IMG/VR virus record: IMGVR_UViG_3300030419_004548
Location: 1 to 59,342 of that record
Strand: one strand, 5' to 3'
DNA: 59,342 nucleotides
From: a virus
Shown here: one piece after another, positions 13,466-59,027 of the stretch
Layout of the letters: each line of letters begins with the position of its first letter
Position numbering within the stretch: position 1 is the first letter of the stretch
Notes under the pieces: generated by a model
What the model was told of the DNA's origin: nothing
Seen by the model: only the letters and a program-made list of their open reading frames with translations
Database searches by the model: none
Position numbers and translations under genes: made by a program

Positions 13466-14207
13466 AGTTTGCTGATAACTCTCTAAACTCTAAAAACTTT
13501 TCCATCAATCCGTTAGACTGCATATATCCAAACATTCCTTGTTCAGCATTTTGACAATAAGTTTGTAAATCTAAATCACTAACACCACTTTTGTAAGTAT
13601 GTGCTGAATGATGTATTAACGGACATCTATCTACTACTCCAACTTTCCATCCTTGTTTTTCACATAAGATACCTGATAAAACATCTTGACCCCAACCATA
13701 AACTAACTCATCAGGAAACTGAGGATACACTCTAATAAAATCTTTGTGTATTAATGGTGCTTGAAAGTCTACCCATTTTACTTGTCGAATCTCATTACTA
13801 TTCCAACAATGCATATATTTCCATTTACATTGATTCTCAACTTGTAGAACAGAAGGAGATATTATTTTATAAGTCAATGAGTCTTTGTAAAACATTTCTT
13901 CTCTGAGTGTTCTTACAAAGTTATTTCCTTGAAGGACTAAGTCATTGTTCAATGATAAAAGACTATCGTATTGTTCAGACATTGTGAAGAAATCTAATGC
14001 TATATTTAGAGCACCACCAAAGTATGTATTCTGACCTGTTTCGTGTGTTGTATACTTTGACTTACCATCTTCACGAGAACCATTATCAATCAGAATTAAA
14101 TCATAATCATCTCTTTCATATGGTTTTAATTCTTCCCATAATTTATCTGTCATCTCGGGAAGATTGTGATTGTATATAACTGCTAATGTTTTAGTTGGTA
14201 GGCTCAT
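13452..14207 (-). CDS. family 2 glycosyltransferase
   Basis: A 251-residue protein with a family 2 start (TLAVIYNHNLPEM), a nucleotide-binding LILIDNGS segment, and SLNNDLVL as the DxD-equivalent site in the rhamnosyltransferase-like subgroup. YGWGQDVL provides the catalytic-base region. It overlaps neighbours by about 15 bases on each side. Likely a transferase in the same glycan assembly. Confidence 0.75.
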   Translation of the reverse strand: MSLPTKTLAVIYNHNLPEMTDKLWEELKPYERDDYDLILIDNGSREDGKSKYTTHETGQNTYFGGALNIALDFFTMSEQYDSLLSLNNDLVLQGNNFVRTLREEMFYKDSLTYKIISPSVLQVENQCKWKYMHCWNSNEIRQVKWVDFQAPLIHKDFIRVYPQFPDELVYGWGQDVLSGILCEKQGWKVGVVDRCPLIHHSAHTYKSGVSDLDLQTYCQNAEQGMFGYMQSNGLMEKFLEFRELSANYVYE

Positions 14208-14874
14208 ATCTATGACCTTCTAATTTAAAATTAATAAATGGATTTAAAGAATGTATATTACATCCATAAACCTCTTGTATTCTATTTTTAATATCTATCG
14301 TGTTTTGGTCAGTTAGATAAAGCCAACGTTCTATTCCACTCCAATTACTTGCATCAGGCCAATGTGGTTTAACGTAACCATCATAATATAATTTTCCGTC
14401 AATCTTACCAACATCATTTCCACAAACAATTATATTCTTAGCGCCCATATAAGCAGCGATGTTCATACAAGTGTTTATAGTAGTCCTAATACAAATCATT
14501 AAGTCTGTTCCTATATTATCAAGTGTCGATTGTTCATTAGCGGGTCCGTTTTCCCACATATAAAAATTATCACCATCCGGACACTCGTTCTCACCTTTGT
14601 CTACATAACCTTTAAAGTATTTACTATATAAAAATTTAATCTTTGGATGATTGTGTAAATCTACAATAGTTTTATCCCATCGTACTTTTACGTTTAAATC
14701 TTTTCCGGCAATATAATCACAAGGATATTTTTCATAAGTTTGATTAACTCCCATTGTTATTTTGTTTTCAAAGAAAGAAGGGTCTACAAAATTCATAGAA
14801 GAGCCACCACCAACTATCCAAATGTCTTCACCTGAATGTACATCTTTTAATTCTTTCAATAACTTATTTGCCAT
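14191..14874 (-). CDS. DUF115-like Rossmann protein
   Basis: The start is set at ATG 14874 because GGAG lies 5 bases upstream; the frame is open to 14898. The 227-residue product has IWIVGGGSSM near its N-terminus and NIIVCGNDVG in the middle, the pattern of DUF115/MAF-type proteins and of related sialyltransferase-like folds. Such proteins sit beside NeuA-type genes in flagellin glycosylation and LPS loci. Directly downstream of the CMP-sugar synthetase, it could be the transferase that uses that activated sugar. This is inference. Confidence 0.55.
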   Translation of the reverse strand: MANKLLKELKDVHSGEDIWIVGGGSSMNFVDPSFFENKITMGVNQTYEKYPCDYIAGKDLNVKVRWDKTIVDLHNHPKIKFLYSKYFKGYVDKGENECPDGDNFYMWENGPANEQSTLDNIGTDLMICIRTTINTCMNIAAYMGAKNIIVCGNDVGKIDGKLYYDGYVKPHWPDASNWSGIERWLYLTDQNTIDIKNRIQEVYGCNIHSLNPFINFKLEGHRYEPTN

Positions 14875-15520
14875 ATTTTCTCCAAATGTGTTCTGCAATC
14901 ATAAAGTCAAATTCAGTATCTATATCTATTGATTCAACTTCATTCGTAACGTGAAACGTAGGTTCATCAGTTACTACATTTCTAAACTCGTGTAAGTCTT
15001 CACAAGATAGAATACAACATCCATAATTTACAGAATAAATATCAGGTAAATCTTGTGAGTTTGGTGCATCACTTGGATTGTAATTTAGTGGTTTCCCATC
15101 TAACCACATATGATGTTTTTGTGATGTTACCGTTACTATATTTCTTGCACCATTTCTAAATCTTGATACACATTCACTTATAGTTTCACTACTAAGTAAT
15201 GGTGATGTACAAGGAGAATACATAATGTATTCACTATCAACTGCAGTAGTTAAATTTACCATAAAATCACTATTGTTCACTTCACTACTCGCATAATAAT
15301 CTTCTCTACGATGTGCAGTTACATTATGTTTACGAGCTATGTCTAACATTTTGTCTGAATCACTCGTCACAACTATTTCATCCAACCCCGCAACTTTCTT
15401 CAGAGTTTCAATTTTTATGTCTAATAAAGTCGTGTTTGCAAATGGTTTTAAATTCTTATTTTTAACTCTTTGTGAACCTTTTCTAACCGGTATAACTGCT
15501 GTTAGTTTATTTGTTTTCAC
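14864..15520 (-). CDS. CMP-sugar synthetase (NeuA/KdsB-type cytidylyltransferase)
   Basis: A 218-residue cytidylyltransferase. The CTP-binding loop reads AVIPVRKGSQRVKNKNL, the classical NeuA signature, followed by VVTSDSDKMLDIA and a C-terminal VESIDIDTEFDF that supplies the metal-binding aspartates. Length matches single-domain NeuA (about 220-240). It activates a 2-keto acid sugar (sialic-, legionaminic-, pseudaminic- or KDO-like) as a CMP derivative. No obvious NeuB-type condensing enzyme is visible, so the sugar probably comes from the host or from a gene outside the window. Confidence 0.85.
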   Translation of the reverse strand: MKTNKLTAVIPVRKGSQRVKNKNLKPFANTTLLDIKIETLKKVAGLDEIVVTSDSDKMLDIARKHNVTAHRREDYYASSEVNNSDFMVNLTTAVDSEYIMYSPCTSPLLSSETISECVSRFRNGARNIVTVTSQKHHMWLDGKPLNYNPSDAPNSQDLPDIYSVNYGCCILSCEDLHEFRNVVTDEPTFHVTNEVESIDIDTEFDFMIAEHIWRKYGK

Positions 15521-16502
15521 TCATAACCTCCTGTAAAATAGCATTCCAATTATCTCTAAAAGTAATTCCTCTGTCATCAATATAGTATTCTGCTCTTGGT
15601 TTTTCCCAAGTAACATAATCTACATATTGTCTAACATCGTATTTTTCTAACCATTCTTCAACTAATTCAACTCCTGTTTTACCATTAACTAATGGTCTAT
15701 CAGGTCTTGCTTTTGCTGTGAATATTATTATATTCCATTTCTCTGATAATTCTTTTAGTGCTTCTAAACTACCACGTATTGGTTCACCATAACAAGTTCC
15801 ATCGTACCAACCTTTATCCATACTATGAATCACACCATCAAAATCTACAGCTATATTTTTCAATTCATTTTCAAATCCTGGTGGAACATTTAAATTAGAA
15901 ATATCTGTATTTACTTCTGATTCTATACCTAATTCTTCAAATCGTCTGTCTTGAGCTTTACCTGCTATTGTCGGACATTTAAATCCTGCTCCGTGTATCA
16001 ATTCATAAATCAATGCTAATGATATTATTTCTGATGTATGATAATTTATTACATCAAAACTAATAGGAATAATTCTTTCGTCTAATCCTTCTTTCGGTTG
16101 TGCGCTCCATAAACAACTATTAATATTATTGTCCACAGACCAATTTAGTCCATTTACTAATGAATTAGAAGACGCACCTGTTGTCGAACAACTTATACCT
16201 ATTGCCAAACATTTAGATTTATCTAATCCTCTACTACGTAACTCTAACCATTTTGATAGCCAAGTTTCAAAAGATTCATCTGAAATAATAGATGTAACTA
16301 AAGTACCACTACCCGGTGCAATTACATTCTTATCAGTTAGTCTTGACATATCAATAGCACCATGGTCTGCTACTCCAAGATTACCACCGTGTCCAAACAA
16401 GAATATATGTTCAGCTTCATTAAATGCTTTTTGTAGTTCTCTCCACTTAGCTGAGTTTCCTATTTGTCTAAATTTACTTTCAAAATTTTCTATACTAACC
16501 AT
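15507..16502 (-). CDS. SIS-HAD fusion: sugar-phosphate isomerase plus HAD hydrolase
   Basis: Start at ATG 16502 with AGGAG upstream; a TTG one codon earlier is unlikely. Residues about 1-200 form a SIS (GmhA-like) domain: IFLFGHGGNLGVADHGA and CLAIGISCSTTGASSNS are the two phosphosugar-binding loops. Residues about 210-331 form a HAD-type domain: IAVDFDGVIH (motif I with two Asp), IIFTAKARPD (motif II) and YYIDDRGITF (motif IV). The fused pair could isomerise a sugar phosphate and then remove or handle the phosphate. It overlaps the cytidylyltransferase gene, so all three may act on one sugar. Substrate unknown. Confidence 0.8.
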   Translation of the reverse strand: MVSIENFESKFRQIGNSAKWRELQKAFNEAEHIFLFGHGGNLGVADHGAIDMSRLTDKNVIAPGSGTLVTSIISDESFETWLSKWLELRSRGLDKSKCLAIGISCSTTGASSNSLVNGLNWSVDNNINSCLWSAQPKEGLDERIIPISFDVINYHTSEIISLALIYELIHGAGFKCPTIAGKAQDRRFEELGIESEVNTDISNLNVPPGFENELKNIAVDFDGVIHSMDKGWYDGTCYGEPIRGSLEALKELSEKWNIIIFTAKARPDRPLVNGKTGVELVEEWLEKYDVRQYVDYVTWEKPRAEYYIDDRGITFRDNWNAILQEVMSENK

Positions 16503-16514
16503 CAAAGTCTCCTA

Positions 16515-17504
16515 CTAATTTTTCCAAAAATCATAAATGCCTTTTTCGACCTCATAGATTTCCCAAGATTGTCTTTTTCTATTTGGTTGTTCTTGTGCCC
16601 AAGACCACATATTACTTAGACCAAGTTCTAAGTCTGTAGTGTCTTTGTAGTCAAGAAGTTCCATAGACTTTTCCCACGTAGGATGTGCGTTCTTTACTTC
16701 GTGTCTCGGTTCAAGATGAACTGATTTACCACCTTGAATAACATCCATCAATACATTGTTTGCTTCATTAATAGTATAGAACGTACCACTACCAAGATTA
16801 ATTATCTCTTTAGATGCTCTTTCATCTACTCCTGCTTTATATAAAGGTTCTAAACAATCACCGATATAACTAAATGCTCTCTTTTGTTCACCATCTCCAA
16901 AAATAGTCATAGGTTGGTCATTCATATATTGATACATCCAAATACCTAATACGTTTCTGTACCTATCCCAAATGTTTTGTTTCTCACCATACACATTATG
17001 TGGTCTAATAATACACCAATCTAATCCGTGTTGTTCACCTGCGATTTGAATATCCATTTCACAAGCATACTTTGCTACACCATAAGGGTCTATTGGAGTA
17101 GGAGTATGTGATTCATCAAACGGAGGATTTCCGTGTCCGTAAACTGCCATCGTAGAAGTAAAAACGAGTCTCTGTACATCATAATTTATACAAGCATTTA
17201 TTACTTTTGATGTAGACATCAAATTATTTTTATAATTAAAAGACCTCATAAAAGGACTCAATCCTTCTGCGGCATATGCGGCAAAGTGATAAACTATATC
17301 AGGTCTTGCTGTTTCGAATAACTTTTCTAACTTACTATTATCTGCTAAATCAAATTGATGAAATTGAACTTCTCTATGTACATTATCAATGTAACCACCA
17401 CTCAAGTCATCAACACCTATGATTATATCATCTGTATTAGTTGCGAACCAATCAGCTAATCTACTACCAAGTAAACCTGCTACTCCTGTTATTAATATTC
17501 TCAT
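16515..17504 (-). CDS. NAD-dependent nucleotide-sugar epimerase
   Basis: A 329-residue extended SDR: Rossmann motif ILITGVAGLLGSRLADW, YHFAAYAAE, a TSTMAVYG serine/threonine region and DPYGVAKY containing Y-x3-K. The pattern fits the UDP-glucose 4-epimerase/dehydratase group. Substrate cannot be fixed. It overlaps the glycosyltransferase upstream by 4 bases. Confidence 0.82.
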   Translation of the reverse strand: MRILITGVAGLLGSRLADWFATNTDDIIIGVDDLSGGYIDNVHREVQFHQFDLADNSKLEKLFETARPDIVYHFAAYAAEGLSPFMRSFNYKNNLMSTSKVINACINYDVQRLVFTSTMAVYGHGNPPFDESHTPTPIDPYGVAKYACEMDIQIAGEQHGLDWCIIRPHNVYGEKQNIWDRYRNVLGIWMYQYMNDQPMTIFGDGEQKRAFSYIGDCLEPLYKAGVDERASKEIINLGSGTFYTINEANNVLMDVIQGGKSVHLEPRHEVKNAHPTWEKSMELLDYKDTTDLELGLSNMWSWAQEQPNRKRQSWEIYEVEKGIYDFWKN

Positions 17505-18139
17505 ACTTTTATTCCACTTATCTCCTCGTTATAGAATTTATTTTGTTGTTCTTGTTTTTCAATAGTCTTTGTATGTAATAAACAAAACTCATCTTCAAAT
17601 GGTAATGCTGTAGTTACCTTCGCACCTGTCAGTATTTCGTGTACAGGTTTTACCCATTTAATTCTTTTATCATTCTTGTATAATCTTGCTTGTGGGTCAG
17701 GAAAATTTATCCTACCCTTCTCATCTAATCTATATCCATATCTTTTACAATGCTCTTCTGTTATTCCTTCTACGGTATTTATTCTCGGTATCCAAAACAT
17801 CTCTACCGTAGGATTAGCATTTATCAAAGCCTTGATATTTCCTATTAGTGTGTCTTGAGGTATCTCATCTGCATCTAATTGAAAAATATAGTCTTTTGTA
17901 CATAGAGAATTTAAGTAATTTTTATGAGAAGCAAAATCTTTTTTTAATTTTTTTTGTTCAAATTTATCTATAAATCCACAATCAATATAAGGTTTCAACA
18001 TATCCAAGTGACTATCATAGCTGAAGTCATCAAGTACAACTACTTCATCTTCATCTTGAATTTTCCAATTCATTAACTCATCAAGCAATCTTTTTAATTC
18101 ATAAGTCTCGTTGTGAGATGTTATCGCATAACTAATCAT
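17501..18139 (-). CDS. family 2 glycosyltransferase, small
   Basis: A 212-residue protein beginning ISYAITSHNETYELKRLL with VVVLDDFSYD and a metal-site motif LDADEIPQD. WIPRINTVEG and the late WVKPVHEIL segment are typical of the WaaE/KdtX-like family 2 enzymes that modify LPS cores. Complete by length for this subgroup (210-260). Confidence 0.8.
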   Translation of the reverse strand: MISYAITSHNETYELKRLLDELMNWKIQDEDEVVVLDDFSYDSHLDMLKPYIDCGFIDKFEQKKLKKDFASHKNYLNSLCTKDYIFQLDADEIPQDTLIGNIKALINANPTVEMFWIPRINTVEGITEEHCKRYGYRLDEKGRINFPDPQARLYKNDKRIKWVKPVHEILTGAKVTTALPFEDEFCLLHTKTIEKQEQQNKFYNEEISGIKV

Positions 18140-18567
18140 AATATCGCATCCAATACTTCAGGTTCTATTTTTACGGGTTCGAGAAAGACTTGACCTCGTG
18201 ATGCTCTATCATAATAATATGTTCTGTAAATCCCATATTTCTTAATCAAAGCTCGTGTTCTTGAGTACACTTGAGGACTTCTTCCTTCAACTAAAATCTT
18301 TATAATATTATCTTTTTTATCTACTTCTTTTATAGTACCAATCTTTTCAAATAAATCTATCAATGCAGATTCAGAACGAATAGCAGGAACATTTCTTACA
18401 TCTAATTGGTATCCGTGTAGTAAGAGGTTCTTTGAATTAGGATGTTTCAATCTCTTTTCAAGTACAATAACACTTCGTTTTGTAGAACGACCATCACTAC
18501 CTTGATATCTGAAAGATACTATATCTCCTCTTTCAACTTTACCCCAACTATATGGTTGTCTTGCCAT
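18136..18567 (-). CDS. 143-aa conserved phage protein, SH3-like start
   Basis: A basic protein whose N-terminal half (VERGDIVSFRYQG, RSVIVLEKRL) looks like a small beta barrel and whose C-terminal half has a helix-rich RTRALIKKYGIYRTYYYDRA segment. I do not recognise a function; similar proteins occur in T4-like marine phages in my recollection. Its ATG overlaps the last 20 bases of the zinc-ribbon gene. Confidence 0.5.
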   Translation of the reverse strand: MARQPYSWGKVERGDIVSFRYQGSDGRSTKRSVIVLEKRLKHPNSKNLLLHGYQLDVRNVPAIRSESALIDLFEKIGTIKEVDKKDNIIKILVEGRSPQVYSRTRALIKKYGIYRTYYYDRASRGQVFLEPVKIEPEVLDAIL

Positions 18568-19027
18568 TTGATTTATCTACGTGTTGTGTTATTCCTAATG
18601 ATTTACAAGCATCAAGAAATTCATATTTACTAAATGATTCTGCACCATCGACATCAAGAAACGTTTCATAGTAACCACCATCAGGTTTAGGATAGTTCTT
18701 TCTTTGGTCTTTTGGTATCTCTTTTACTTTGGCAACTTTGTAGTACCATAACTCAGGTTCACCTTCAGGATAAATCATACCCATAGCTCCCATATTAATT
18801 AAAGAAGGATACCATTCTAATCCTCGTTCTCTGTCTTCTATTTTTAATTGTTTTACCAATGATGTATAATTTTGTGTCTCTTCATCACACTCATTTAATT
18901 TAAGTGCTGAGTTAGAAGTATAACCACAATCAAAACAAATATAAGATTCGAATCCTTCGTCCGTAACTTCTACAAAACAAGAATGATTATCACCATTGAA
19001 AGTAGGACAAGTTGTTTTCTTTTCCAT
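18548..19027 (-). CDS. zinc-ribbon hypothetical protein
   Basis: A 159-residue protein with an N-terminal zinc-ribbon: C7, C16, then C31-x2-C34 in YICFDCGY. The rest is an unrecognised alpha/beta domain (LEWYPSLINMGAMGMIYPEG). Such ribbon proteins are common as uncharacterised genes in T4-like marine phages. It may bind nucleic acid or the transcription machinery; no direct evidence. Confidence 0.55.
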   Translation of the reverse strand: MEKKTTCPTFNGDNHSCFVEVTDEGFESYICFDCGYTSNSALKLNECDEETQNYTSLVKQLKIEDRERGLEWYPSLINMGAMGMIYPEGEPELWYYKVAKVKEIPKDQRKNYPKPDGGYYETFLDVDGAESFSKYEFLDACKSLGITQHVDKSNGKTTI

Positions 19028-19030
19028 TTA

Positions 19031-20341
19031 CTATTTCACCTTTTTAAGTTTAGGTAATTTCACACTATTTTCTTTTTTCTGTAACTTGGGTAAATTAACT
19101 GCTACGTGTTCAGGTATGTTTTCTACGTAAGGTTTAATTATCTTAGCCAACTTTTCTGTCATACCGTTTAGTGTAAATTGTTCATTAGCAATCTTCTGAG
19201 CATATGATTTTGTTAACCACTTATCATAGTTAGTAAATATGTCTTTTAGAAAATGAGAACCTGCCGCAAAATCTACCTGAAACCATTGTGCACCTTCAAA
19301 CATATAATCTTTAGGTATAGAATCTTTATGCACATCAACTAAAGCTCCTGGCAACATAGCAGACATTTCTTTATCAAGAAAATCTACGTGACCTGAAAAA
19401 TTAGGTGCTATGATAGGTTTACCTGTAGTACTAAACTCTAATAAGGGTCTACCAAATCCTTCACCTTTAGTAAAACTAACCATAGATTTTATTTTAGGGT
19501 GATTATATAATTCATTCATTTGTGTATCAGACAACTCTCCGTGTAATAAATAAATAGAAGGAGCTTTCTTATACACACATTGTTCTTTTACTTCTTTAAT
19601 GCTGTTCATTAAATCATATTTGTCTATAGGACTATGTGTGCCTCTTGAAGTTTTCAATACTAATGCGGGTGCATTATCAGTATTCTTAAACGTTTCTATA
19701 AAAGTCTTGACTAAACTTGCAACATCTTTTCTATCGTGTCCAAATGGACCAGGTAACCAATGTCCTGTAAATAGATATGCAAAATCTTCTTTTATAGAAC
19801 CAAGTTCATTTGCTATGCTTTCACTATACTCATCCGTCTTCTTGTATATAGTTTCATCATATCCTTCAAATAAAACTTCGATAGGTTTACTACATTTAAT
19901 TGTACCTGCTTTGTTTCCCTTCTCATCTTTTTTATCAAATGAAGATGAACCCATAACCGTCTTAACAAATTCAGAAGGGACTATATTCAAGTCCATTCTA
20001 TTCATCGCATCTACCCAATTAGGATGAGGTAGTGTCCATTCAACTCCGGCAGTAACACCTATATTAACTTTACCAATATTTTGAAATTCAGTTGGTACAC
20101 TAACGTGAAAATGTATATCAGGCTGTCTTTCGATACGACCATCTATAGACAATGTTTCTATGATTCTTTTATCTCTTTCATCATCTGAATTAAGAGCATT
20201 TTGAGGAGTGTTGCCCCATCTGATAGGTAATGTCTTTACTTGGTAACCTAAATCTAAAAGTGAAATTACTATATCTCTTGCGTGTGAACCATAACCACTA
20301 CGAGTACCTACAGGTCCTATAACTGAAACTAATTTACTCAT
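19031..20341 (-). CDS. GT4-like (GT-B) glycosyltransferase
   Basis: A 436-residue GT-B enzyme. The N-terminus begins SVIGPVGTRSGYGSHARD (glycine-rich acceptor-side loop). The donor region near residues 285-320 has FTKGEGFGRPLLEFSTTGKPIIAP with the E-x7-E pattern of family 4. The C-terminal tail is lysine-rich and ends in KLPKLKKVK, sharing KLPKLKKV with the N-terminus of the neighbouring transferase. It follows that gene after one base, so the two are probably co-translated and may work together on one glycan. Confidence 0.85.
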   Translation of the reverse strand: MSKLVSVIGPVGTRSGYGSHARDIVISLLDLGYQVKTLPIRWGNTPQNALNSDDERDKRIIETLSIDGRIERQPDIHFHVSVPTEFQNIGKVNIGVTAGVEWTLPHPNWVDAMNRMDLNIVPSEFVKTVMGSSSFDKKDEKGNKAGTIKCSKPIEVLFEGYDETIYKKTDEYSESIANELGSIKEDFAYLFTGHWLPGPFGHDRKDVASLVKTFIETFKNTDNAPALVLKTSRGTHSPIDKYDLMNSIKEVKEQCVYKKAPSIYLLHGELSDTQMNELYNHPKIKSMVSFTKGEGFGRPLLEFSTTGKPIIAPNFSGHVDFLDKEMSAMLPGALVDVHKDSIPKDYMFEGAQWFQVDFAAGSHFLKDIFTNYDKWLTKSYAQKIANEQFTLNGMTEKLAKIIKPYVENIPEHVAVNLPKLQKKENSVKLPKLKKVK

Positions 20342-20342
20342 C

Positions 20343-21806
20343 TTAAACCTCGTATAACTGAAATTGTTTAATCGGCTTCCACTCTTTAAATGTAGTGTCT
20401 ATCGATTCTATAAAAGCTTTTCCCATATTCTTTGCTGATAAAGAAGTCTCAGGTAACAAACAATATTCTCTTCCTGCTTTACCTGCTTTCTGTCTGTATT
20501 CAGCTGAATGCTTATACCACTCATATAGTCTATCACCCGCATCTTCCCATTTAGGTCTGTCATCAAATATGTATGGTGTCTGTGGTGAACCTTGTAATGA
20601 ACGAGATGCAGGCCAAACAGGCTTTACCCATTCACCGTGTTCTGTATATCTACCATCGTGATTAGAACCCCACTCTTTTGTATAATCTTCTTTCATTAAA
20701 AGTGAACCATCTTCTTTTCTAAATCCACATTGGTCTTGCATTCCACCTGTAACGTTAACAACAATCGGTGTTCCTGCCATTAATGATTCTGCTGTACCAA
20801 GTCCGAATCCTTCATTAGATGCTATGTTAATTGTAACATCAGATATATTGTAAAGTATATTCATATCATCTTCATCTAATCTTTGTGGTATAAACATAAC
20901 TTCAGCGTTTGGACAATTATGTCTAACGACCTCTACTAAATCTGTACCGTTATTATCAACAGGTGCTGTTTTCATTATCAACAAACAATCTTTTCTTTCT
21001 TCGTCTGATAATTTATTTAACATATGTGCATATGCTAATACTACATCACCTGGCAGTTTTCTACGTATGTTTCTATTATTCCACAACACAACAAATTTAG
21101 TATTTTTATTTCTGATATTGTCGTCTTTCCATTTCATCATTTTATCATACGATTCTTTGTTTTTAGAATCAATAGGAAAGAATACTTTTTCATTAATACC
21201 ATGAGGTACAAGTGTATTCTGCCAATCTTTTACAGGAACATTCTTTCTAACGTTACGTACAATATTCCAAGTTTGTTTTGTTATGTTCATCAAACAATCT
21301 ACTGATTCATAGAAAGGTTCATTCCACATTGGATATGGTAAGTCATCCCAAATATTATAATAAAGAATTGGAATTCTTGAACGAATCTCGTGACTCATAT
21401 CAAACATAAATCTCCAAAATCTTGGGTCAGTATAAATTATTATAGCATCGGGATGATAATGATTCATCAGTTCTCTAACTAAAGTATCACTTCCGTATCC
21501 TGATATAGGATGTACAATTAGATTAGCATCTTCTACACCTGTTTTTGTTCTCAAGTCGTCAGAGCAATTAAATATTTGACCTTCTTCAGGATGTTTAATA
21601 GCACCACCTGCTTGTATCCAATCATACTTGTGACAAGTTTGTCTTATCATTTCTAAAGACATAACTCCTACACCTGATGCCATTCTACAATCATCAGAAA
21701 ATAATAATATCTTTTTCTTACCTGATGGACTCTTTCCTCTTAAATCAGATAACGGTTCTGCTTTAGCAGATACCTTTTTTAATTTAGGTAATTTTATATC
21801 AGCCAT
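20343..21806 (-). CDS. GT4-like (GT-B) glycosyltransferase with KLPKLKKV tail
   Basis: A 487-residue GT-B protein. After an N-terminal lysine-rich extension (residues 1-30, containing KLPKLKKV), the acceptor domain starts KILLFSDDCRMASGVGVMS. The donor domain has NIASNEGFGLGTAESLMAGTPIVV, the E-x7-E family 4 signature. A C-terminal segment of about 60 residues follows. Likely partner of the transferase immediately downstream. Overlaps the small upstream gene by 8 bases. Confidence 0.85.
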   Translation of the reverse strand: MADIKLPKLKKVSAKAEPLSDLRGKSPSGKKKILLFSDDCRMASGVGVMSLEMIRQTCHKYDWIQAGGAIKHPEEGQIFNCSDDLRTKTGVEDANLIVHPISGYGSDTLVRELMNHYHPDAIIIYTDPRFWRFMFDMSHEIRSRIPILYYNIWDDLPYPMWNEPFYESVDCLMNITKQTWNIVRNVRKNVPVKDWQNTLVPHGINEKVFFPIDSKNKESYDKMMKWKDDNIRNKNTKFVVLWNNRNIRRKLPGDVVLAYAHMLNKLSDEERKDCLLIMKTAPVDNNGTDLVEVVRHNCPNAEVMFIPQRLDEDDMNILYNISDVTINIASNEGFGLGTAESLMAGTPIVVNVTGGMQDQCGFRKEDGSLLMKEDYTKEWGSNHDGRYTEHGEWVKPVWPASRSLQGSPQTPYIFDDRPKWEDAGDRLYEWYKHSAEYRQKAGKAGREYCLLPETSLSAKNMGKAFIESIDTTFKEWKPIKQFQLYEV

Positions 21807-22273: not shown

Positions 22274-22684
22274 TTAACCCGAGATTATTACAAAACTTTT
22301 TTCTAATTCTTCAGCATACTTTAAAGCAGATTTTGTTCCGTTAGTTACATTCGTAGGAACAAATGCTATTACCATATCTGAATGTTCAACTAACTTTTTA
22401 TTACGACTATGATAGTTACCAACGTTATATGGTCTACCATAATAAAATCTTTCTAATACACAATGTAAATTATATGGTTCGTGATATGGTGGAAACTCGT
22501 GATACTCTAAATCAAAATCTAAAGCATATCTCTTTGCATATTTATCAGCACCATACTTTGCACCGCCTGAAACAATTATAACTTCTCCATTATACTTTTC
22601 TTTTAGTTTATAAATAAACTCTTGTATCTTTCTTTTGTTTGTGTATTCTCTGCTACCAATAATAGCACACTTAATCTTTGACAT
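22274..22684 (-). CDS. SLOG/YAcAr-like nucleotide-binding protein (DUF2493-like)
   Basis: A 136-residue Rossmannoid protein: CAIIGSREYTNKRKI at the start, VIIVSGGAKYGADKYAKRYA in the middle and MVIAFVPTNVTNGTKSALKYA at the end. This is the three-part SLOG pattern (G-S-R; GGAxGAD; GT-x). These proteins bind nucleotides or nucleotide-derived signals and occur in phages and near defence systems. Family known, substrate unknown. It overlaps the upstream gene by 14 bases. Confidence 0.72.
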   Translation of the reverse strand: MSKIKCAIIGSREYTNKRKIQEFIYKLKEKYNGEVIIVSGGAKYGADKYAKRYALDFDLEYHEFPPYHEPYNLHCVLERFYYGRPYNVGNYHSRNKKLVEHSDMVIAFVPTNVTNGTKSALKYAEELEKSFVIISG

Positions 22685-23087: not shown

Positions 23088-23883
23088 AATCTTCTCCGTA
23101 AAATATATAGTTTCTCTGACCTTTAAACCTTGAATTAGGTCTGTCCATACGTTTTGCTGATACTTCATATAATTCTTCATCTAATACCATACCCATAGAT
23201 TTTATATCTTCTATTATTTGCTGATGTTGTTTTCTGTATCTATAATATGAAGAATTTTTATGTTGAGGGTTAGGGAACAACTCAATTAATAGTGACTTCA
23301 AATTAGGTATAGTTTCTAAAGCACCTGCTACTACATCAGGTTCAGCACCATCAACGTCTACTTTCAAGTGTGTTGGATATGTCAAACCTTGTTTTACTAA
23401 ATTATCGATACTATCAACTACACATCCCGATTTATACCAAACACCTAATCTATGTTTAGACATTGCACTTACTTCTATTTCATTGGCACTACTTCCTGGG
23501 TCTGCATTATTTAAATGATTTAGAGTAGTGTAAGCAAACTCACTACCTATCCCCATAGGAAAAGATGTAATCTTATCAGATACTTTATTTAAAAGTATAT
23601 TCTGTTCTAAAACATTAATGTTATAACTTGCGGGTTCAAATGCTACAACTTGTACACCTCTTCTAACTGCAGCATAAATACTATAACTTCCGACACAAGC
23701 TCCAACATCCCACAACACATCGTCTTCTTCCATTCTATCTAACCAAGTAATAGTTTCAGGTTCCTTAGTCATCAGAGTTTTTGCTCGCATACCTAAGAAA
23801 GAGTCTTCATTATCTATTATAAAGTAAATAACATCACCATTAATAAATGTTCGTTTATTAGTCTTAAATTTTGTTTTAATCAT
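23077..23883 (-). CDS. FkbM family methyltransferase
   Basis: A 268-residue SAM-dependent methyltransferase of the FkbM group. Motif I reads VLWDVGACVGSYSIYAA near residues 56-72, VVAFEPASYN gives the acidic ribose ligand, and LKVDVDGAEPDVVAGA is the FkbM-specific motif. FkbM proteins O-methylate sugars or small molecules and are frequent in marine phages. The acceptor is unknown; it may cap sugars assembled by the island just downstream. Confidence 0.85.
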   Translation of the reverse strand: MIKTKFKTNKRTFINGDVIYFIIDNEDSFLGMRAKTLMTKEPETITWLDRMEEDDVLWDVGACVGSYSIYAAVRRGVQVVAFEPASYNINVLEQNILLNKVSDKITSFPMGIGSEFAYTTLNHLNNADPGSSANEIEVSAMSKHRLGVWYKSGCVVDSIDNLVKQGLTYPTHLKVDVDGAEPDVVAGALETIPNLKSLLIELFPNPQHKNSSYYRYRKQHQQIIEDIKSMGMVLDEELYEVSAKRMDRPNSRFKGQRNYIFYGEDYAV

Positions 23884-24716
23884 AAATCTTTACACTTTGT
23901 AAATGCTTTACATTTTCCTACACATTTTTTGTATTCTATGTTTTTAACCTGCCCGGACTCATCATAACAAGAATCTAAGAACTCTTCAAATCTTGCTCTC
24001 ATCTTATTCATACTTGGAGTACCATTAGCAGGAACGTGTCTTTGTATTCTCTTCTGAGGAAAGTCTAAATTCTCATACAACTTTCTTTTGAAGATTAAAA
24101 ACTCGATATCAATCATTTCTACAGGAACGTTATGTTTTTTCGAATAGTATTCTTTGTACAATAATAATTGGTCACTCTTTACAGCATTTGCTTTCTGATA
24201 TTTATTCCAACCCATTGTTGCTGTCTTGATGTCAATGATTTTTATCTTACCACTTATCTCATCTTTCATTACTACATCAAGAAATCCAAGAAAGTGTAAA
24301 TCACCACGTATAGGTATAGCCAATCTTTCTTCTATGCCAAGAAGTGTCCAATTTCTTTTACTGAAGTATTGGTTACGTTTCTTTCTGAACCAATCTATTA
24401 TCTCTAATCCTTGTTCATAAAACTCAACCATATCTTCTCTTTTTACTAAGTGTAACTTTTCAGTTTCTACTATTTCTTTATCGTAAAACTCTTTCATTTT
24501 ACGTCTTAGTAAATCTTCTAAGTTTTGTTGGTCTGCTTCTTTAGCAGTAAAGTTATACATACAACCAAGATAAAGTTGAATTACTTCGTGCATAGCACTA
24601 CCAAAGATAGTGTGTATCGAAGGTTCACTTGTTTTAATCTTGTCTACGTATTGTAACTTCCACTGATAAGGACATTGATTCCAAAGTGAATATTGACTAT
24701 AACTTACTTGTCTCAT
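23880..24716 (-). CDS. PD-(D/E)XK nuclease, Cas4/RecB-like with cysteine cluster
   Basis: A 278-residue RecB/Cas4-type exonuclease. It starts with the family box SYSQYSLWNQCPYQW (C15), has an early HEVIQ-type histidine region and the core GFLDVVMKD...IIDIKTA, giving D and D-x-K. The C-terminal C265, C269 and C275, together with C15, match the four cysteines that hold a 4Fe-4S cluster in Cas4 and AddB. No CRISPR or cas genes are present, so it probably serves phage recombination or degradation of host DNA. Its ATG overlaps the upstream small gene. Confidence 0.8.
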   Translation of the reverse strand: MRQVSYSQYSLWNQCPYQWKLQYVDKIKTSEPSIHTIFGSAMHEVIQLYLGCMYNFTAKEADQQNLEDLLRRKMKEFYDKEIVETEKLHLVKREDMVEFYEQGLEIIDWFRKKRNQYFSKRNWTLLGIEERLAIPIRGDLHFLGFLDVVMKDEISGKIKIIDIKTATMGWNKYQKANAVKSDQLLLYKEYYSKKHNVPVEMIDIEFLIFKRKLYENLDFPQKRIQRHVPANGTPSMNKMRARFEEFLDSCYDESGQVKNIEYKKCVGKCKAFTKCKDL

Positions 24717-55000: not shown

Positions 55001-55313
55001 AAGATGATTCATTTCCATCTATGAAAACAAAGTCAGTTTGTTTTTCTAATTTGTCTACTTCGAATCCCTTTGCGAATGAATCATCAAAAAAGTTAAAACC
55101 ACGATGGTCGCCTTGTAGAAAAATACTACCATTTCTAAGACCATATCCAAGTAATTGTTCTTGAACAGGTAATGGATTTTGTATAGGTCTATCAAATGAT
55201 TGTTTACCTGTTACAATCTTAGAATCTTGTGGATTTGCCTTATAAGATTGTGGCTTACCAACCTGATTATAATCAAACGATTGAATTTTATCTAATAAGT
55301 CTACTAATGCCAT
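52074..55313 (-). CDS. baseplate/tail-tube-associated protein with N-terminal repeats
   Basis: A 1079-residue protein. Residues about 60-265 hold four degenerate copies of a unit centred on NFF (residues 74, 119, 185, 243) followed by GF and a polar stretch. The last 300 residues (TRHLQFRASINSL, DRDISLDFTLYPKT, FPFLIEKLNYLVGLCYPEYN) form a tube/baseplate-type domain that resembles contractile-injection tube-initiator proteins such as gp48/gp54. No catalytic motif. It probably joins the tube to the baseplate, with the repeats as an added surface domain. Confidence 0.6.
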   Translation of the reverse strand: MALVDLLDKIQSFDYNQVGKPQSYKANPQDSKIVTGKQSFDRPIQNPLPVQEQLLGYGLRNGSIFLQGDHRGFNFFDDSFAKGFEVDKLEKQTDFVFIDGNESSFIPTANDSVWPGPVNFFDKDDEHPFVNGFILNKGLQGNGPGTSDFKFLYNDLNTYTVTPRLEDFGGNVYKWSAWDTPSGVNFFFGDGRVDDVATGFTPNMQSTQFVKINDEESVFDYIPKVSTNQTYQWPAFNSPYAVNFFSDTHVVGFSKEMQTSTLFHVPAVSSKMLVNSIEGGQYNSTSYLWSTDYFDYLNNLEFLDISNVGSLTDPITFQSRLAIPDTSLYGGIDYRRQAGRIENMTIDDSNFVTTDVDSGDATEVNFVRDQVVNVSRDSEGTNLNIPAGTRTSMQYPNSYTGKQITQEGLILEGGLDGIDDEVLVKPNRLKEFADDYFKDENKSMFIAVDDDGKAISANKTQFKFLSPKDQGRKGADTYTNYIQEMSPGKNQPFIVRKIDDHWGSSDDGSGNFIGEFVGGFVRTTGSPNDSIMGRLGRELADVQRKGKWLLSTDGLAFGLGQLFLQLQNRTIETRMWNPLSLASNDFIHIKRHLGGLTYEDALSDPISALKKKLPSFLQRFLKEPENNKITPDGRNQYQSKWRANVKSPEDKASNKESTAAEKIKEKTLAGKAAALSKFSLIRSNPNHWFRLKFPFDPYKSADGSDEDVTNLENRLKTGADNKTLHTTHTFSEKELNRQGLDYRYLSYGQIKSVANDKNEEYESIIKDDLANQNNSYTGNSPGQANAWSKEKTGEVLNLLDNVQDLSRMDIARIMDNSNAKGKFGDEVNALSLSDYDEDELIDWVQLSFSTQQTSANKTRTRHLQFRASINSLNESISPEYNEQKYLGRPDKYYTYSGVDRDISLDFTLYPKTATEFPFLIEKLNYLVGLCYPEYNTSGFMIAPYTRFTLGNMYDDAPGYISSLQVNVQENTTWEFDMFKFPKHITCSLTYRYIGKYLPHKFGKHYDLPWLGIDTTNPGNLGSTVSDKDHAVNRSRSGGPELSPGGKELTKMQEALGVNIPKEAKEEVPAADPNPAATSD

Positions 55314-57277
55314 TACATTATCTGCCTAACTGCTCTTGTTGTTTCTTCATTAGAAGATATTACTCTATTAAGTGTTTCTTTGTTATCTTTATTTCCTGAT
55401 TTCACTTCAGCAACTAATTCTTCTCTTATAACACTTACTAATTTACCCATTTCTAAGTTTATAGCATCTTGAGTTGACTTTGAAACGTTTATAGATGCGG
55501 CATCACCTAATGAAAATGTTGCGGCAGGTTCCATTGAACCAACTGATTTTCTTTCTATTGATGCGTCTTCCATTTTTGTTGCACCTAAAGCAAGTCCTCC
55601 TATTGTACCACCAACTCCTGCGCCTATAATAGCTCCTTTCGTACCCGCGCCTAAAGCCGCCCAAGTTACTCCTCCTGTAAATATTCCTAATGAACCTAAT
55701 ATAAAACCAATTGCTCCACCTAATGCTGTAGCAATACCTACGTACATTCCAATTTGTTTTAATAGTCCTTGATTTCCTTCTTCAGTTTTACTATTAAAAA
55801 TATCTTGTCCTTGTATAACTTTTTGTAATTGTTCTTGTGTCAATCCAAAAGCTTGTGTTAATGATTTAACCTGTGCCGCATTTGCTGTACTTAAATCAAA
55901 TTGACCTCCAAGTTGCATCTTAATTTCTTTTGCTAATGCAGCAGAATCTCTGTTAAATGCCGCTTCTCTTGCTTTATTTAAATTTATATTTTTACCAAAT
56001 AATAATTGTAATTCAAATTCTGAAGATATTGATGATTCTAAATCTAAAAGTGATTCTGCTAACGAATTTAATGCACTCGCTTCAATACCAAGTTTTCTCA
56101 TTTCAACCGCTGCTTTACCTATTTCTTCTGCACTCTTACCAAAGAATAAAGCTTGGTCTTTTGCGGCGTTAGCAACATCATCAAATACTTGACTTTTTAA
56201 GACTCCTTCTGATTCTGCTAATGCTTCTAAAGATGCTAAATCATCAATAGCCTTGTCAGCTGATATACCTTGTGATAATGCTTGTAATTCTACGATTGTA
56301 GCTAATGATTCTGCTGATGCTCCTGAAAGACTTGCTATCACACCAAATTGTGCTGCGCTCGTTGTAGATAACTGAGGAACTCTTCCCATAGACTCGGCTA
56401 AAGCTCTTACTGAAGCAGATGCTTTTTCAGCATCCCCACCAAATGCGGCTCCTGCTTTTGATGCTGCTTCCATATCCGCTGAAAGTGCTAAAGCACTACC
56501 TGCCGTAATACCTAATTCTTGACGAGCTTCTTTTGCCTGCATAACAAAGTCTGTTACTGCTTTTACTAATAAACCTACTGCGGCTAAAGCTATAGCAGGT
56601 CCACTCGTAAGTATAGCAGTAAAGTCTTCGGCTTTTTGTTTTAAATCATCTACCTTATCAAGAAATGGTATATTAGCGTTTAGAGCATTTGCAATACCCT
56701 CCGCATTTTTACCTGCACTTTCAAAACTATCTTTAAAGTTTTCAAATTGGTCTTCAGGTATTAAATCTTTATATTTGTCTTTTAACTCATCTACTTTACT
56801 ATTAAATTCTTCTTGAACAAAAGTCCCTTCTTCTAACTGAGATATAGCTTCTTGTCGAAGTGCTTCCATAGCATTAAAACCTTCCGCTTCTTCGTATTGT
56901 CCGGCTTTACGTGCCGCAGCTGCGGCTTTTACAAGTGATAAATCTTTTGCTTTTATACCAAGCATTTCTAATAAAGTAGATTTTGAAGAATTAGCTAGCT
57001 TATTCGCAGATTTAGCTAAATTTTGTCCTTTCTTAGAAACATCTATTCGTTTCTTTGATAATGCTATTCTTTCTTCTTCAGCTTTCTTTTGGTCAGCATC
57101 ACGTTTTTCTACGTATCTTTGATGCGCACGATATTGACGATAACTTCTTGTTTCACCTGCTTCTTTTGCTTTTAGATAATCAAGATAATTTTCATTCGCT
57201 TTTTGCCGTTTCTCGTCTAATCGAGCTTCTTCTCGTTTTGCTTCAAGCGAGGCTTTTTGTGCTTTACTTAGTGCCAT
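55313..57277 (-). CDS. tail tape-measure-like protein
   Basis: A 654-residue alpha-helical protein. The first 80 residues are a charged coiled coil (KAQKASLEAKREEARLDEKR). The middle is alanine-rich helices (EAASKAGAAFGGDAEKASAS), followed by a hydrophobic, glycine-rich membrane-like segment at about 510-570 (MYVGIATALGGAIGFILGSL). That order (coiled coil, helices, hydrophobic segment) is typical of tape-measure proteins, and the location after the gp26-like gene agrees. T4 gp29 is of similar size (590). The hydrophobic part may form the membrane channel during DNA ejection. Confidence 0.68.
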   Translation of the reverse strand: MALSKAQKASLEAKREEARLDEKRQKANENYLDYLKAKEAGETRSYRQYRAHQRYVEKRDADQKKAEEERIALSKKRIDVSKKGQNLAKSANKLANSSKSTLLEMLGIKAKDLSLVKAAAAARKAGQYEEAEGFNAMEALRQEAISQLEEGTFVQEEFNSKVDELKDKYKDLIPEDQFENFKDSFESAGKNAEGIANALNANIPFLDKVDDLKQKAEDFTAILTSGPAIALAAVGLLVKAVTDFVMQAKEARQELGITAGSALALSADMEAASKAGAAFGGDAEKASASVRALAESMGRVPQLSTTSAAQFGVIASLSGASAESLATIVELQALSQGISADKAIDDLASLEALAESEGVLKSQVFDDVANAAKDQALFFGKSAEEIGKAAVEMRKLGIEASALNSLAESLLDLESSISSEFELQLLFGKNINLNKAREAAFNRDSAALAKEIKMQLGGQFDLSTANAAQVKSLTQAFGLTQEQLQKVIQGQDIFNSKTEEGNQGLLKQIGMYVGIATALGGAIGFILGSLGIFTGGVTWAALGAGTKGAIIGAGVGGTIGGLALGATKMEDASIERKSVGSMEPAATFSLGDAASINVSKSTQDAINLEMGKLVSVIREELVAEVKSGNKDNKETLNRVISSNEETTRAVRQIM

Positions 57278-57510: not shown

Positions 57511-58116
57511 TTAAAATTCTTTTTTAGGCATATAATAAATTGAAATTTTTTCGTCAAAATAATCATTACTCACAGGTTCAATTCCTGTAACTTTTTGAAA
57601 AGAATAATCTTGAGGGAAAAATGGAAATTTGTTTTTTTCTGTTATATGACCATTCCACCAAGTAACACGAGTTCCTTCTCTTGTTAGTTGTGATAATGAT
57701 GAACTAAAATGTTGTGTATCAGATGTGAATCCTGCATCCCACCATATACCATCATATGTTTCTAACTTATCTAAATTACTATACCAACTACCTTCAACGA
57801 TTGTTACATTATGTTTGTCTTTGGCCCATTCATTTGCTTTTTCAATAATCTGAGGATGTATTTCACAAATAGTGTGAGATGAAATATCGTGTGATTGTAT
57901 GTAATCAGCACTTATACCCATTCCAAAACCAAACTCTAAAATGTCTCCTCCGTTCTCACAAACATATGCGGCTGAAGCAGACATTATAGGGTCTTCCCAT
58001 TTCATCATAACATTAATTAATTTGCCTTCAGTATTTATGTAAGTTATTCTATCATCTTCAAATGATAAAGATGCTGATAAGTAATTTGAAGTTGCTTGAT
58101 TTTTTTTACTTGGCAC
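57511..58116 (-). CDS. class I methyltransferase in tail module
   Basis: A 201-residue SAM-dependent methyltransferase-fold protein. Motif I is ILEFGFGMGISADYIQ, with CEIHPQII as the acidic ribose-binding strand and YDGIWWDAGF as motif IV. The pattern is like guanidinoacetate/arginine-type N-methyltransferases. The likely start is GTG at 58116 overlapping the preceding ORF; the next ATG is 36 codons further in. An unusual gene between the gp26-like and tape-measure genes. Confidence 0.65.
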   Translation of the reverse strand: MPSKKNQATSNYLSASLSFEDDRITYINTEGKLINVMMKWEDPIMSASAAYVCENGGDILEFGFGMGISADYIQSHDISSHTICEIHPQIIEKANEWAKDKHNVTIVEGSWYSNLDKLETYDGIWWDAGFTSDTQHFSSSLSQLTREGTRVTWWNGHITEKNKFPFFPQDYSFQKVTGIEPVSNDYFDEKISIYYMPKKEF

Positions 58117-58324
58117 GTGTGTACTTACTTGATGCTTTTTTCATTCTTTCGTTTTCTTCTTTTTTAGCTTTTACTAATCTTCTATAATACCACTCTCTCA
58201 TACCTAAGGGCATATTATATAATTCATCAAAACTATGAAAACCTTGGCTGTAATAGCCTAATTGGAATATTTGTTCGTAGACGCTTTCTCTATATTGTGG
58301 CGTTAGGCCAAAAAAATCGAACGG
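58106..58324 (-). CDS. start-less ORF after gp26-like gene, possible frameshift extension
   Basis: After a TGA at 58327-58325 the frame is open to TAA at 58106, with no ATG, GTG or TTG before the Met 33 codons after the slip site. The translated part begins FFGLTPQYRESVYEQIFQLG and has a helical basic C-terminus. From the T7 run at 58310-58316 it is 67 residues. Reached by a +1 or -2 shift from the gp26-like gene it would give a longer form of that protein. Many tail-assembly chaperones upstream of tape-measure genes are made this way. Confidence 0.55.
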   Translation of the reverse strand, partial: PFDFFGLTPQYRESVYEQIFQLGYYSQGFHSFDELYNMPLGMREWYYRRLVKAKKEENERMKKASSKYTRAK

Positions 58325-59027
58325 TCATTGGGACCGTTACCTCCTGCTCAAAACCATCTGATAATTTAACTTTTGCTGTGAAATCAATGTCAGGATTAAT
58401 TTCAGAAATATAGTCTCTAAAAGCTACAGAGTCTCTTGCCATAAACTTATTATCTACAAAGTCATCTATATCTTTTGTTTCTGATTTTCCATCTACTGAT
58501 TTGATAATCAATTTGTATCGATTTGTTAACTCTCTTGATTGACCTGCTTTTTCATATGCTTTATTCAAGTCTTCAAGTTGTTTTTCCATATGACCATCTA
58601 ATATAGAAAATACTATTTTATTTTTACCAACAGGTGTAGTGTACTTAAACTCATTCTTATGTTTTTCAACAAGATTTTTTTCATCTAACCAAATTTCTTT
58701 TAAAGAAGTTAAATCAACACTTACTTCTTCATCTGCAACCATAATAGGATAATCTTTACCATACCCAAGTATACGTGCTGATACTAATAGAGTATTTTTA
58801 TCACCAATAACAAAATCTTCTAACTTGACTCCTTCTGTAACAATAATACTTTCTAAAAGTTTATCTAATACAATACCTTTTTCGATAAGGTTAGGAGAAG
58901 TAAGAATATCTTCTTCTTTTGCTGTCATATATTTGATTTCAACTTGTCCACTCGATAGTGGATGTTCTTTTGGATACACTAATCCTTTTGAAGGTAAATC
59001 TATTACCTCAGTAGGAAATTTACTCAT
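58290..59027 (-). CDS. 26: gp26-like baseplate protein / tail-assembly protein
   Basis: A 245-residue protein of the T4_baseplate (gp26) group: FPTEVIDLPSKGLVYPKEHP at the start, IKYMTAKEEDILTSPNLIEKG and the LVSARILGYGKDYPIMV segment. T4 gp26 takes part in baseplate hub assembly; in marine relatives the gene lies before the tape-measure gene. The last 35 bases overlap a second frame. A good ribosome binding site (AGAGG) precedes the start. Confidence 0.8.
   Translation of the reverse strand: MSKFPTEVIDLPSKGLVYPKEHPLSSGQVEIKYMTAKEEDILTSPNLIEKGIVLDKLLESIIVTEGVKLEDFVIGDKNTLLVSARILGYGKDYPIMVADEEVSVDLTSLKEIWLDEKNLVEKHKNEFKYTTPVGKNKIVFSILDGHMEKQLEDLNKAYEKAGQSRELTNRYKLIIKSVDGKSETKDIDDFVDNKFMARDSVAFRDYISEINPDIDFTAKVKLSDGFEQEVTVPMTVRFFWPNATI
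58310..58338 (-). promoter_or_regulatory. hairpin plus T7 slip site
   Basis: Coding strand: AACGGTC-CCAAT-GACCGTT (7-bp stem, 58338-58320), then CGA and seven T (58316-58310). The run lies where the gp26-like frame overlaps the start-less ORF. It could be a frameshift site with an upstream structure, or an intrinsic terminator shape inside the gene. Confidence 0.5.

What the first reader, a model, noticed from the sequence alone, without database searches (positions are those of the whole stretch)
58106..58338. Possible programmed frameshift linking the gp26-like gene to a start-less ORF
A 67-residue coding-like frame begins at a run of seven T inside the last codons of the gp26-like gene and has no usable start before residue 33. 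A 7-bp hairpin lies just upstream of the run. Reading on needs +1 or -2. The position, just before the tape-measure module, is where tail-assembly chaperones use frameshifting in many phages (Xu, Hendrix and Duda described this as conserved). The terminator-like shape is an alternative explanation.
Basis: partly seen in the sequence, partly recalled or inferred. Interest (0 to 1): 0.72.

Follow-up and report, generated by a model that had tools for sequence, protein, structure and literature searches.

The report
Ribosome frameshift builds phage tail chaperone
In this phage and its relatives the ribosome appears to skip one base at a fixed spot near the end of a tail-assembly gene, so that one gene yields a short and a long chaperone; the principle is known, but related phages seem to slip the opposite way at the same spot.

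Summary
On the minus strand the gp26-like gene (58290-59027) runs through T7 (58310-58316); the +1 frame is open from there to 58106, without ATG/GTG/TTG before codon 35. The second frame is conserved: 85 of 85 loci first inspected have it. A UUU codon followed by a pyrimidine lies at the overlap in 116 of 116 nonredundant +1 loci; UUU_Y is an independently known +1-prone tetranucleotide (PMC5009743, passage). The base before the run avoids T (two-fold codons C 30: T 1, elsewhere 666: 2437), which blocks -1 slipping. In distant cyanophage-type relatives that base is T in 126 of 126 and the related second frame lies at -1. Two relatives whose second ORF has its own ATG have lost UUU_Y. The gene belongs to the T4 gp26 family (phrog_150, 55 of 56 members); its N-terminal fold resembles the HK97 tail assembly chaperone (Z 5.1). 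Best reading: programmed +1 frameshifting makes a 306-residue chaperone beside a 245-residue one. The kind is known; this +1 branch was not found in print, but the key paper could not be read. No experiment shows the product.

The parts
58290..59027 (-). 0-frame gene, T4 gp26 family; short tail assembly chaperone (G-like), 245 aa
   Evidence: ORF; phrog_150 'baseplate hub' hit by 55 of 56 and Pfam T4_baseplate by 27 of 56 aligned members, though not by the window's own sequence at E<=0.01; model pLDDT 92; N-terminal fold like HK97 tail assembly chaperone 2ob9, Z 5.1
58310..58316 (-). slip site TTTTTTT (0-frame TTT TTT TGG); UUU followed by a pyrimidine
   Evidence: UUU_Y present in 116 of 116 nonredundant +1 loci, window included
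58317..58317 (-). guard base before the slip codon (A here; almost never T in the +1 group)
   Evidence: 1 T in 70 representatives with TTT as first codon; two-fold codons C 30: T 1 against 666: 2437 elsewhere
58106..58315 (-). +1-frame second ORF (T-like domain, FFGL...TRAK, 69 aa, then stop), no ATG/GTG/TTG before its 35th codon
   Evidence: related to the -1-frame T domain of cyanophage-type relatives, hhalign probability 92%
58106..59027 (-). inferred frameshift product, 306 aa
   Evidence: inference; reading TGGC as one step gives 305 residues over 58110-59027, plus the last Lys
58320..58338 (-). 7-bp hairpin AACGGTC-CCAAT-GACCGTT just upstream of the slip site; terminator-like
   Evidence: same register with at least 6 of 7 pairs in 13 of 73 representatives, with compensatory changes
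58339..58345 (-). Shine-Dalgarno-like AGGAGGT ending about 23 nt before the slip codon, role unknown
   Evidence: core SD-like 5-mers at -38..-18 in 48 of 73 representatives, 0-8 of 73 in 25 control windows; Glu codons there GAG 90: GAA 36 against 269: 1121 elsewhere
58290..58292 (-). 0-frame stop TAG that ends the short product
55313..57277 (-). 654-aa ORF in the position of the tape measure (inferred from synteny only)
   Evidence: no Pfam or PHROGs hit at E 0.1; tape measure annotated after the homologous gene in immuto and LIS04

Best explanation
The gene pair is the tail assembly chaperone of a T4-group phage. Most ribosomes read the gp26-like gene to its stop and make the short chaperone (245 aa). 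A minority, with tRNA-Phe on a UUU codon that is followed by U, slip forward one base (UUU to UUU), leave the 0 frame and continue through the start-less ORF, making a long chaperone (306 aa) whose extra domain is inferred to bring tail-tube protein to the tape measure, as in phage lambda G/GT. A non-T base before the run stops the tandem -1 slip that cyanophage-type relatives appear to use at the same Phe-Phe codons. Shown by sequence: two conserved overlapping frames, UUU_Y in every +1 locus, the guard base, and profile similarity of both domains to the -1 group. Inferred: that slipping happens, its rate, the exact slip codon, and the role in tail assembly.
For: Conserved second frame, 85 of 85 first loci. 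9 of these 85 have no ATG/GTG/TTG in the +1 frame before the 40th codon after the slip, and L007 and L054 have none at all. Cognate +1 re-pairing in 116 of 116 nonredundant loci. In 20 of 116 the +1 frame opens only 2 nt before the slip codon, and the nearest 0-frame stop is 15 nt after its first base, which confines the event. Direction-specific choice of the base before the run: C 30: T 1 against 666: 2437 (Fisher p 4e-19; rows are related), and T in 126 of 126 in the -1 group. UUU_Y is absent in the two loci whose second ORF has its own start just after the stop (L258, L263). Cultured phages with the same +1 layout: SP-15, LIS04, vB_SagM-GXN1, RM378, immuto, Mel-JY01. Profile comparison of +1 with -1 group: G 95%, T 92%. 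UUU_Ynn is described as especially prone to +1 shifting in bacteria (PMC5009743, passage). HK97 chaperone fold.
Against: No protein or ribosome data. The slip codon is not the same in all: only the first codon fits in 13 loci, only the second in 14. No downstream structure stands out: mean z -0.8 in two downstream windows over 73 representatives; upstream -40..-1 -1.0. The SD-like element lies 23-25 nt away in most bearers, farther than SD stimulators that I recall, and it is kept in L258 and L263, which lack the shift layout. 42 of 85 loci have some ATG/GTG/TTG in the +1 frame at or before the slip. Direct profile comparison of the +1 G with T4 gp26 (0.5%) and gp51 (0.6%) and of the +1 T with the end of gp51 (5.9%) failed; the link runs through the -1 group. 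Foldseek alone gives the HK97 chaperone E 2.4, and Z 5.1 is middling by the tool's own note.
Confidence: 0.88

Rival explanations
1. The ribosome slips -2 rather than +1 at the same T run, adding one more Phe (as in phage Mu).
For: Same final frame; cognate -2 re-pairing of the second codon is possible in 89 of 116 loci, the window's TTT TTT TGG among them. PMC5009743 (passage) names -2 in Mu.
Against: Cognate -2 pairing fails in 27 of 116 loci (TTC TTT TGG, TTC TTT CGT, TTT with CTT, CTA or TTA), whereas +1 works in all 116. UUU_Y is a known +1 site.
Confidence: 0.1
2. The second ORF is translated on its own, by internal initiation or by coupled restart at the 0-frame stop.
For: Two +1-branch relatives have an ATG start for it just after the stop (L258, L263). 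The internal Met of VYNMP is common. An SD-like element lies 23-25 nt upstream of the run in 40 of 73 representatives. 42 of 85 loci have some start codon at or before the slip in frame.
Against: L007 and L054 have no ATG/GTG/TTG in the ORF, and 9 of 85 none before codon 40. Conservation covers the part before the internal Met. 33 of 48 SD-bearing representatives have no in-frame start from -36 to the slip. It does not explain UUU_Y, the guard base, or FF shared by both frames.
Confidence: 0.05
3. RNA polymerase slips on the T run (transcriptional slippage) and produces a mixed mRNA.
For: The window has seven T, and 77 of 116 loci carry TTT TTT TGG CCT.
Against: 27 of 116 loci have the run broken (TTC TTT TGG, TTT CTT TGG, TTT TTA TGG and others) and still keep the second frame. 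Polymerase slippage would not be expected to depend on the base before the run.
Confidence: 0.03
4. Hairpin and T run are a transcription terminator; the second frame is incidental.
For: Stem of 7 pairs followed by T7 matches a terminator consensus.
Against: The second frame is conserved protein in 85 of 85 loci and evolves under purifying selection near the window. A strong stem is present in 16 of 73 representatives (controls 1-5 of 73), while the slip codons stay. Further ORFs follow on the same strand.
Confidence: 0.02

Closest known systems
Lambda G/GT-type tail assembly chaperones (programmed frameshift; Xu, Hendrix and Duda papers seen only as cited in PMC5009743, passages)
   Same: Short and frameshift-extended product from one gene near the tape measure; second ORF without start; possibly a related fold (HK97 chaperone)
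   Different: Lambda shifts -1; here +1 at UUU_Y, in a gp26-type protein
T4-group chaperones gp26/gp51 (Vladimirov, Gautam and Davidson 2022, paper not held; known from citing passages in PMC10885494, and PMC12846349; that the genes are 26 and 51 is my recall)
   Same: G domain in the gp26 family; T domain linked to the C-terminus of gp51 through the -1 group
   Different: T4 carries gene 26 and a separate longer gene 51 (divergent); cyanophage-type relatives have T_TTT_TT[C/T/G] with the second frame at -1; here the frame is +1
UUU_Y +1 sites: influenza PA-X (UCC_UUU_CGU) and YopN-TyeA (PMC5009743, passages)
   Same: UUU followed by a pyrimidine, forward slip; phage vB_SagM-GXN1 even reads TTT CGT
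   Different: Other genes and functions; here a guard base against -1 is conserved
HSTV-2 haloarchaeal myovirus G-T, 'very likely +1' (PMC5009743, passage)
   Same: +1 in a tail chaperone gene pair
   Different: Archaeal virus; its site and any homology to this family were not examined here

Membership tests
Frameshifted tail assembly chaperone (lambda G/GT type) | second ORF overlaps the 3' end of the first in another frame and lacks its own start | tested here: met
   window; relatives: (42 of 85 have some start codon in frame at or before the slip); exceptions L258, L263
Frameshifted tail assembly chaperone (lambda G/GT type) | conserved slip site in the overlap | tested here: met
   UUU_Y in 116 of 116
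Frameshifted tail assembly chaperone (lambda G/GT type) | gene lies between tail tube and tape measure genes | tested here: inconclusive
   LIS04: sheath, tube, hub, tape measure; SP-15: sheath, tube, hub, small ORF, putative tail protein; immuto: sheath, 'tail completion protein', hub, small ORF, tape measure. Not so in RM378, where sheath and tube follow. In the window the upstream side is cut off and two small ORFs precede the presumed tape measure
Frameshifted tail assembly chaperone (lambda G/GT type) | chaperone fold | tested here: inconclusive
   HK97 chaperone 2ob9 best, Z 5.1, rmsd 3.1, 77 aligned, next row Z 2.2; Foldseek E 2.4
Frameshifted tail assembly chaperone (lambda G/GT type) | long product made as a minor form and needed for tails | not testable with these tools
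   needs proteomics or genetics
Canonical -1 tandem slip (X_XXY_YYZ) | base before the run identical to it and second ORF in the -1 frame | tested here: not met
   window base is A and the frame is +1; tandem -1 possible in 1 of 116 (L024)
UUU_Y +1 shift sites | UUU codon followed by a pyrimidine where the frame changes | tested here: met
   literature passage
T4 gp26 family (phrog_150 / Pfam T4_baseplate) | profile match | tested here: met
   55 of 56 and 27 of 56 aligned members at E<=0.01; the window sequence itself does not match at 0.01; direct hhalign of +1 G against four gp26 proteins 0.5%, but +1 G with -1 G 95% and -1 G with gp26 99.6%

The most novel reading that the evidence does not exclude
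Homologous chaperone genes of the T4 group split into two deep branches that slip in opposite directions at the same Phe-Phe codons. Direction is set by one guard base plus a relocated SD-like element (about -15 in the -1 branch, about -30 in the +1 branch, with an intervening hairpin in part of it), and T4 itself replaced slipping by gene duplication; so the direction of a programmed frameshift can be switched in evolution by very few base changes.
Probability: 0.3. Interest if true: 0.75.

Novelty: new variant of a known kind. Interest (0 to 1): 0.6.

Why it matters
[quoted passage not shown] A later paper, known here only through citing passages, assigned T4-group chaperones and -1 poly-T signals. 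The present data add a large branch (116 nonredundant loci, plus SP-15, LIS04 and RM378) with the second frame at +1 behind UUU_Y in the same gene family, and show which single base guards the direction. That makes the choice of direction testable in an ordinary Bacillus subtilis reporter. It also bears on annotation: in public records the second ORF is a separate small hypothetical gene, left out, or called baseplate hub assembly catalyst or gp51 in the -1 branch.

Tried and rejected
Tried without gain: Pfam and PHROGs on the window's own proteins gave no usable name for G or T; relatives had to be used. Downstream RNA structure: no convincing signal. Hairpin as a general stimulator: rejected as general, kept as lineage-specific. 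SD-like element as the start of the second ORF: rejected for most bearers (33 of 48 have no in-frame start nearby). SD as a frameshift stimulator: left open, because it is kept in the two loci without the shift layout, lies at other distances in SP-15 and Mel-JY01, and no core SD-like 5-mer was seen near there in LIS04, GXN1 or RM378. Weak T-domain match to DUF6760 (5 of 60, best E 1.5e-4) was followed by one search that rang nowhere, not even in controls, so it says nothing. A mixed alignment A4 for a fold of the fusion was poor and was not used. GeneTack paper (passage) reports 6-7% for HK97-type chaperones, not this family. Print searches; their listings and the passages read showed no +1 in this group, but the lists were capped and the key paper (Virology 566:9-15) is not held, so prior description cannot be excluded.

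Rows and limits. Of the 80 loci only 19, on contigs that I judged new by eye from their names, were analysed; of 20 two cut-off ones (L266, L267) were left out; of 60 three (L273, L318, L328) were left out. The 116 count leaves out L258, L263 (own start), L268 (-1), L265 (cut by contig end) and 3 identical rows. SP-15, LIS04 and RM378 came later and are not in the 116; they do not carry the Pro codon that the other slip quartets share, and the second-frame proteins of GXN1 and RM378 are more diverged. LR756511 has its second frame at -1 with a different G end and was not classified. Pseudomonas phage Cygsa01 has no TTT TT run and an ATG that overlaps the stop, so it may start the second ORF separately; phiM9 and several other -1 loci also have an ATG, GTG or TTG near the stop, so the -1 reading of that branch rests on the conserved T_TTT_TT and frame, not on absence of starts. 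In one search the second ORF of L113 and L131 runs to the end of the stored DNA. The -1 motif was sought as TTT plus TT[ACGT]-type codon within 36 nt of the stop. The tree is a quick one with long branches (L268, L004, L090, L091), so the root of the +1 branch is unsure.

Full report
Observation. The window (an IMG/VR virus record) ends inside the tail module of a phage that also carries DNA polymerase, ribonucleotide reductase, DnaB-type helicase and UvsX-like genes. On the minus strand the gp26-like gene (58290-59027, 245 aa) ends ...CGA TTT TTT TGG CCT AAC GCC ACA ATA TAG. The +1 frame is open from a TGA that starts 11 nt before the run to 58106 and reads FFGLTPQYRESVYEQIFQLGYYSQGFHSFDELYNMPLGMREWYYRRLVKAKKEENERMKKASSKYTRAK from the run on. 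No ATG/GTG/TTG occurs before its 35th codon.

Conservation. In all 85 loci then inspected (80 IMG/VR, 4 records, the window) the +1 frame stays open 169-343 nt past the 0-frame stop. Sixty of these second-frame proteins were aligned: F1, Y33, P36 and R40 are invariant and the consensus runs FFGLTP.YR..LF.QIH.IVFHG.GG.....VYNMPIWLR. Nine of the 85 have no start codon before codon 40 after the slip, and L007 and L054 have none at all; 42 of 85 have some start codon in frame at or before the slip. Against its two near relatives (87-88% identical in G) the part beyond the 0-frame stop has dN/dS near 0.16 and 0.11; between those two it is near 0.40 on few differences.

Slip site. After adding 38 loci and removing exceptions, a truncated row and identical rows, 116 nonredundant +1 loci remain. 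Quartets: TTT TTT TGG CCT 77, TTC TTT TGG CCT 13, TTT CTT TGG CCT 9, others 17. The rule that fits all is a UUU codon followed by U or C; +1 slipping then keeps a cognate tRNA-Phe pair. It is possible in 116 of 116 loci, at the first codon only in 13 and at the second only in 14. Cognate -2 slipping is possible in 89 of 116, tandem -1 in one (L024). In 20 of 116 the +1 frame opens only two bases before the slip codon, and the nearest 0-frame stop starts 15 nt after it, so the event is confined to this spot. The tRNA reading rules in that script are simplified and from my own knowledge.

Direction guard. The codon before the Phe pair should follow ordinary codon use. It does not. In 70 representatives (under 80% identical) with TTT as first codon, two-fold codons end in C 30 times and T once, against 666 C and 2437 T elsewhere in the same genes; four-fold codons end in T in 0 of 27, against 2606 of 5700 elsewhere. 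A T there would allow the tandem -1 slip. In the distant relatives whose second frame lies at -1, the same base is T in 126 of 126. Rows are related, so the p values are indicative only.

The other branch. S-RIM8, P-SSM2, phiM9, OLIVR6, Aeromonas phage 65.2, Atu_ph07 and 80 cyanophage-like IMG/VR loci end gp26 with T TTT TT[C/G], and further IMG/VR loci with T TTT TTT; the second frame is at -1. In 81 of 81 cyanophage-type loci the -1 frame is the longer one. Profile comparison links the branches: G 95% and T 92% probability. A quick tree of 117 proteins needs one change between +1 and -1 rows; L268, an outlying relative at the base of the +1 side, has its second frame at -1, and long branches make the root unsure. 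T4 gp26 and gp51 (four phages each) match over 193 columns (98.5%), and the T domain of the -1 branch matches the end of gp51 (95%); the +1 domains do not match gp26 or gp51 directly (0.5%, 0.6%, 5.9%). So T4 seems to carry short and long chaperones as two genes; the PRFect paper says this of some T4-like phages, citing Vladimirov et al. (passage).

Natural control. L258 and L263 sit inside the +1 branch, but their second ORF starts with its own ATG just after the 0-frame stop, and their Phe/Leu codons are TTC TTG TAT and TTC CTT TGG, without UUU. Loss of the slip codon goes with gain of a start codon, perhaps in one event, since the two are sisters.

Function. Members hit phrog_150 'baseplate hub' (55 of 56) and Pfam T4_baseplate (27 of 56). 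The window protein's model (pLDDT 92) has HK97 tail assembly chaperone as best solved match (Z 5.1 over 77 residues, within residues 1-89; next 2.2), weak by Foldseek (E 2.4). In BFVD the matches include proteins named T4-like baseplate hub proteins. In LIS04 the gene lies between tube and tape measure, in SP-15 between tube and a putative tail protein, in immuto between a 'tail completion protein' and the tape measure; in RM378 the order differs. The role, short and long chaperone bridging tape measure and tube, is inferred from the lambda model as summarised in PMC5009743 (passages).

Unexplained. An SD-like GAGGAGG occurs at -38 to -18 in 48 of 73 representatives, ending 23-25 nt before the run in 40 of them, and Glu codons there are GAG 90: GAA 36 against 269: 1121 elsewhere. 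In the -1 branch SD-like cores peak at -16 to -14. The +1 element seems too far for the known way of action (recalled), and it is kept in L258 and L263.

Verdict. A programmed frameshift by all sequence criteria tested, most likely +1 at UUU_Y; a new variant of a known kind, not a new kind. Unproved: the product, its rate, and +1 against -2 in the window itself. The central paper on T4-group chaperones could not be read, so first description cannot be claimed.

Noticed in passing
L258 and L263, just after the 0-frame stop: Two relatives inside the +1 branch give the second ORF its own ATG and have lost UUU_Y: frameshift apparently replaced by separate initiation.
   Followed up: partly
window 58339-58345 and relatives: SD-like GAGGAGG ending mostly 23-25 nt before the slip codon, strong GAG codon bias, kept even without the shift layout; role unknown.
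   Followed up: partly
window 57511-58116: Methyltransferase-like ORF (Pfam Methyltransf_25 E 1.1e-4, below the curated cut-off) overlapping the end of the second ORF, between chaperone and presumed tape measure.
   Followed up: no
T domain, alignment A1: 5 of 60 second-ORF proteins match DUF6760 (PF20546) weakly (best E 1.5e-4).
   Followed up: partly
window 4947-21806: Sugar-nucleotide and glycosyltransferase genes among those scanned (UDP-glucose/GDP-mannose dehydrogenase, polysaccharide biosynthesis epimerase, glycosyltransferases).
   Followed up: no
window 22274-22684 and 23880-24716: YspA/SLOG-like small protein and a PD-(D/E)XK nuclease.
   Followed up: no
L335 (Rhodothermus phage RM378): Annotated second CDS begins inside the +1 ORF at a GTG; the +1 frame continues upstream to the FF of the hub-like gene, so the annotation may be truncated.
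   Followed up: partly
L091 (Pseudomonas phage Cygsa01): gp26-like gene ends without a TTT TT run and the next ORF has an ATG overlapping the stop: another possible case of separate initiation.
   Followed up: no
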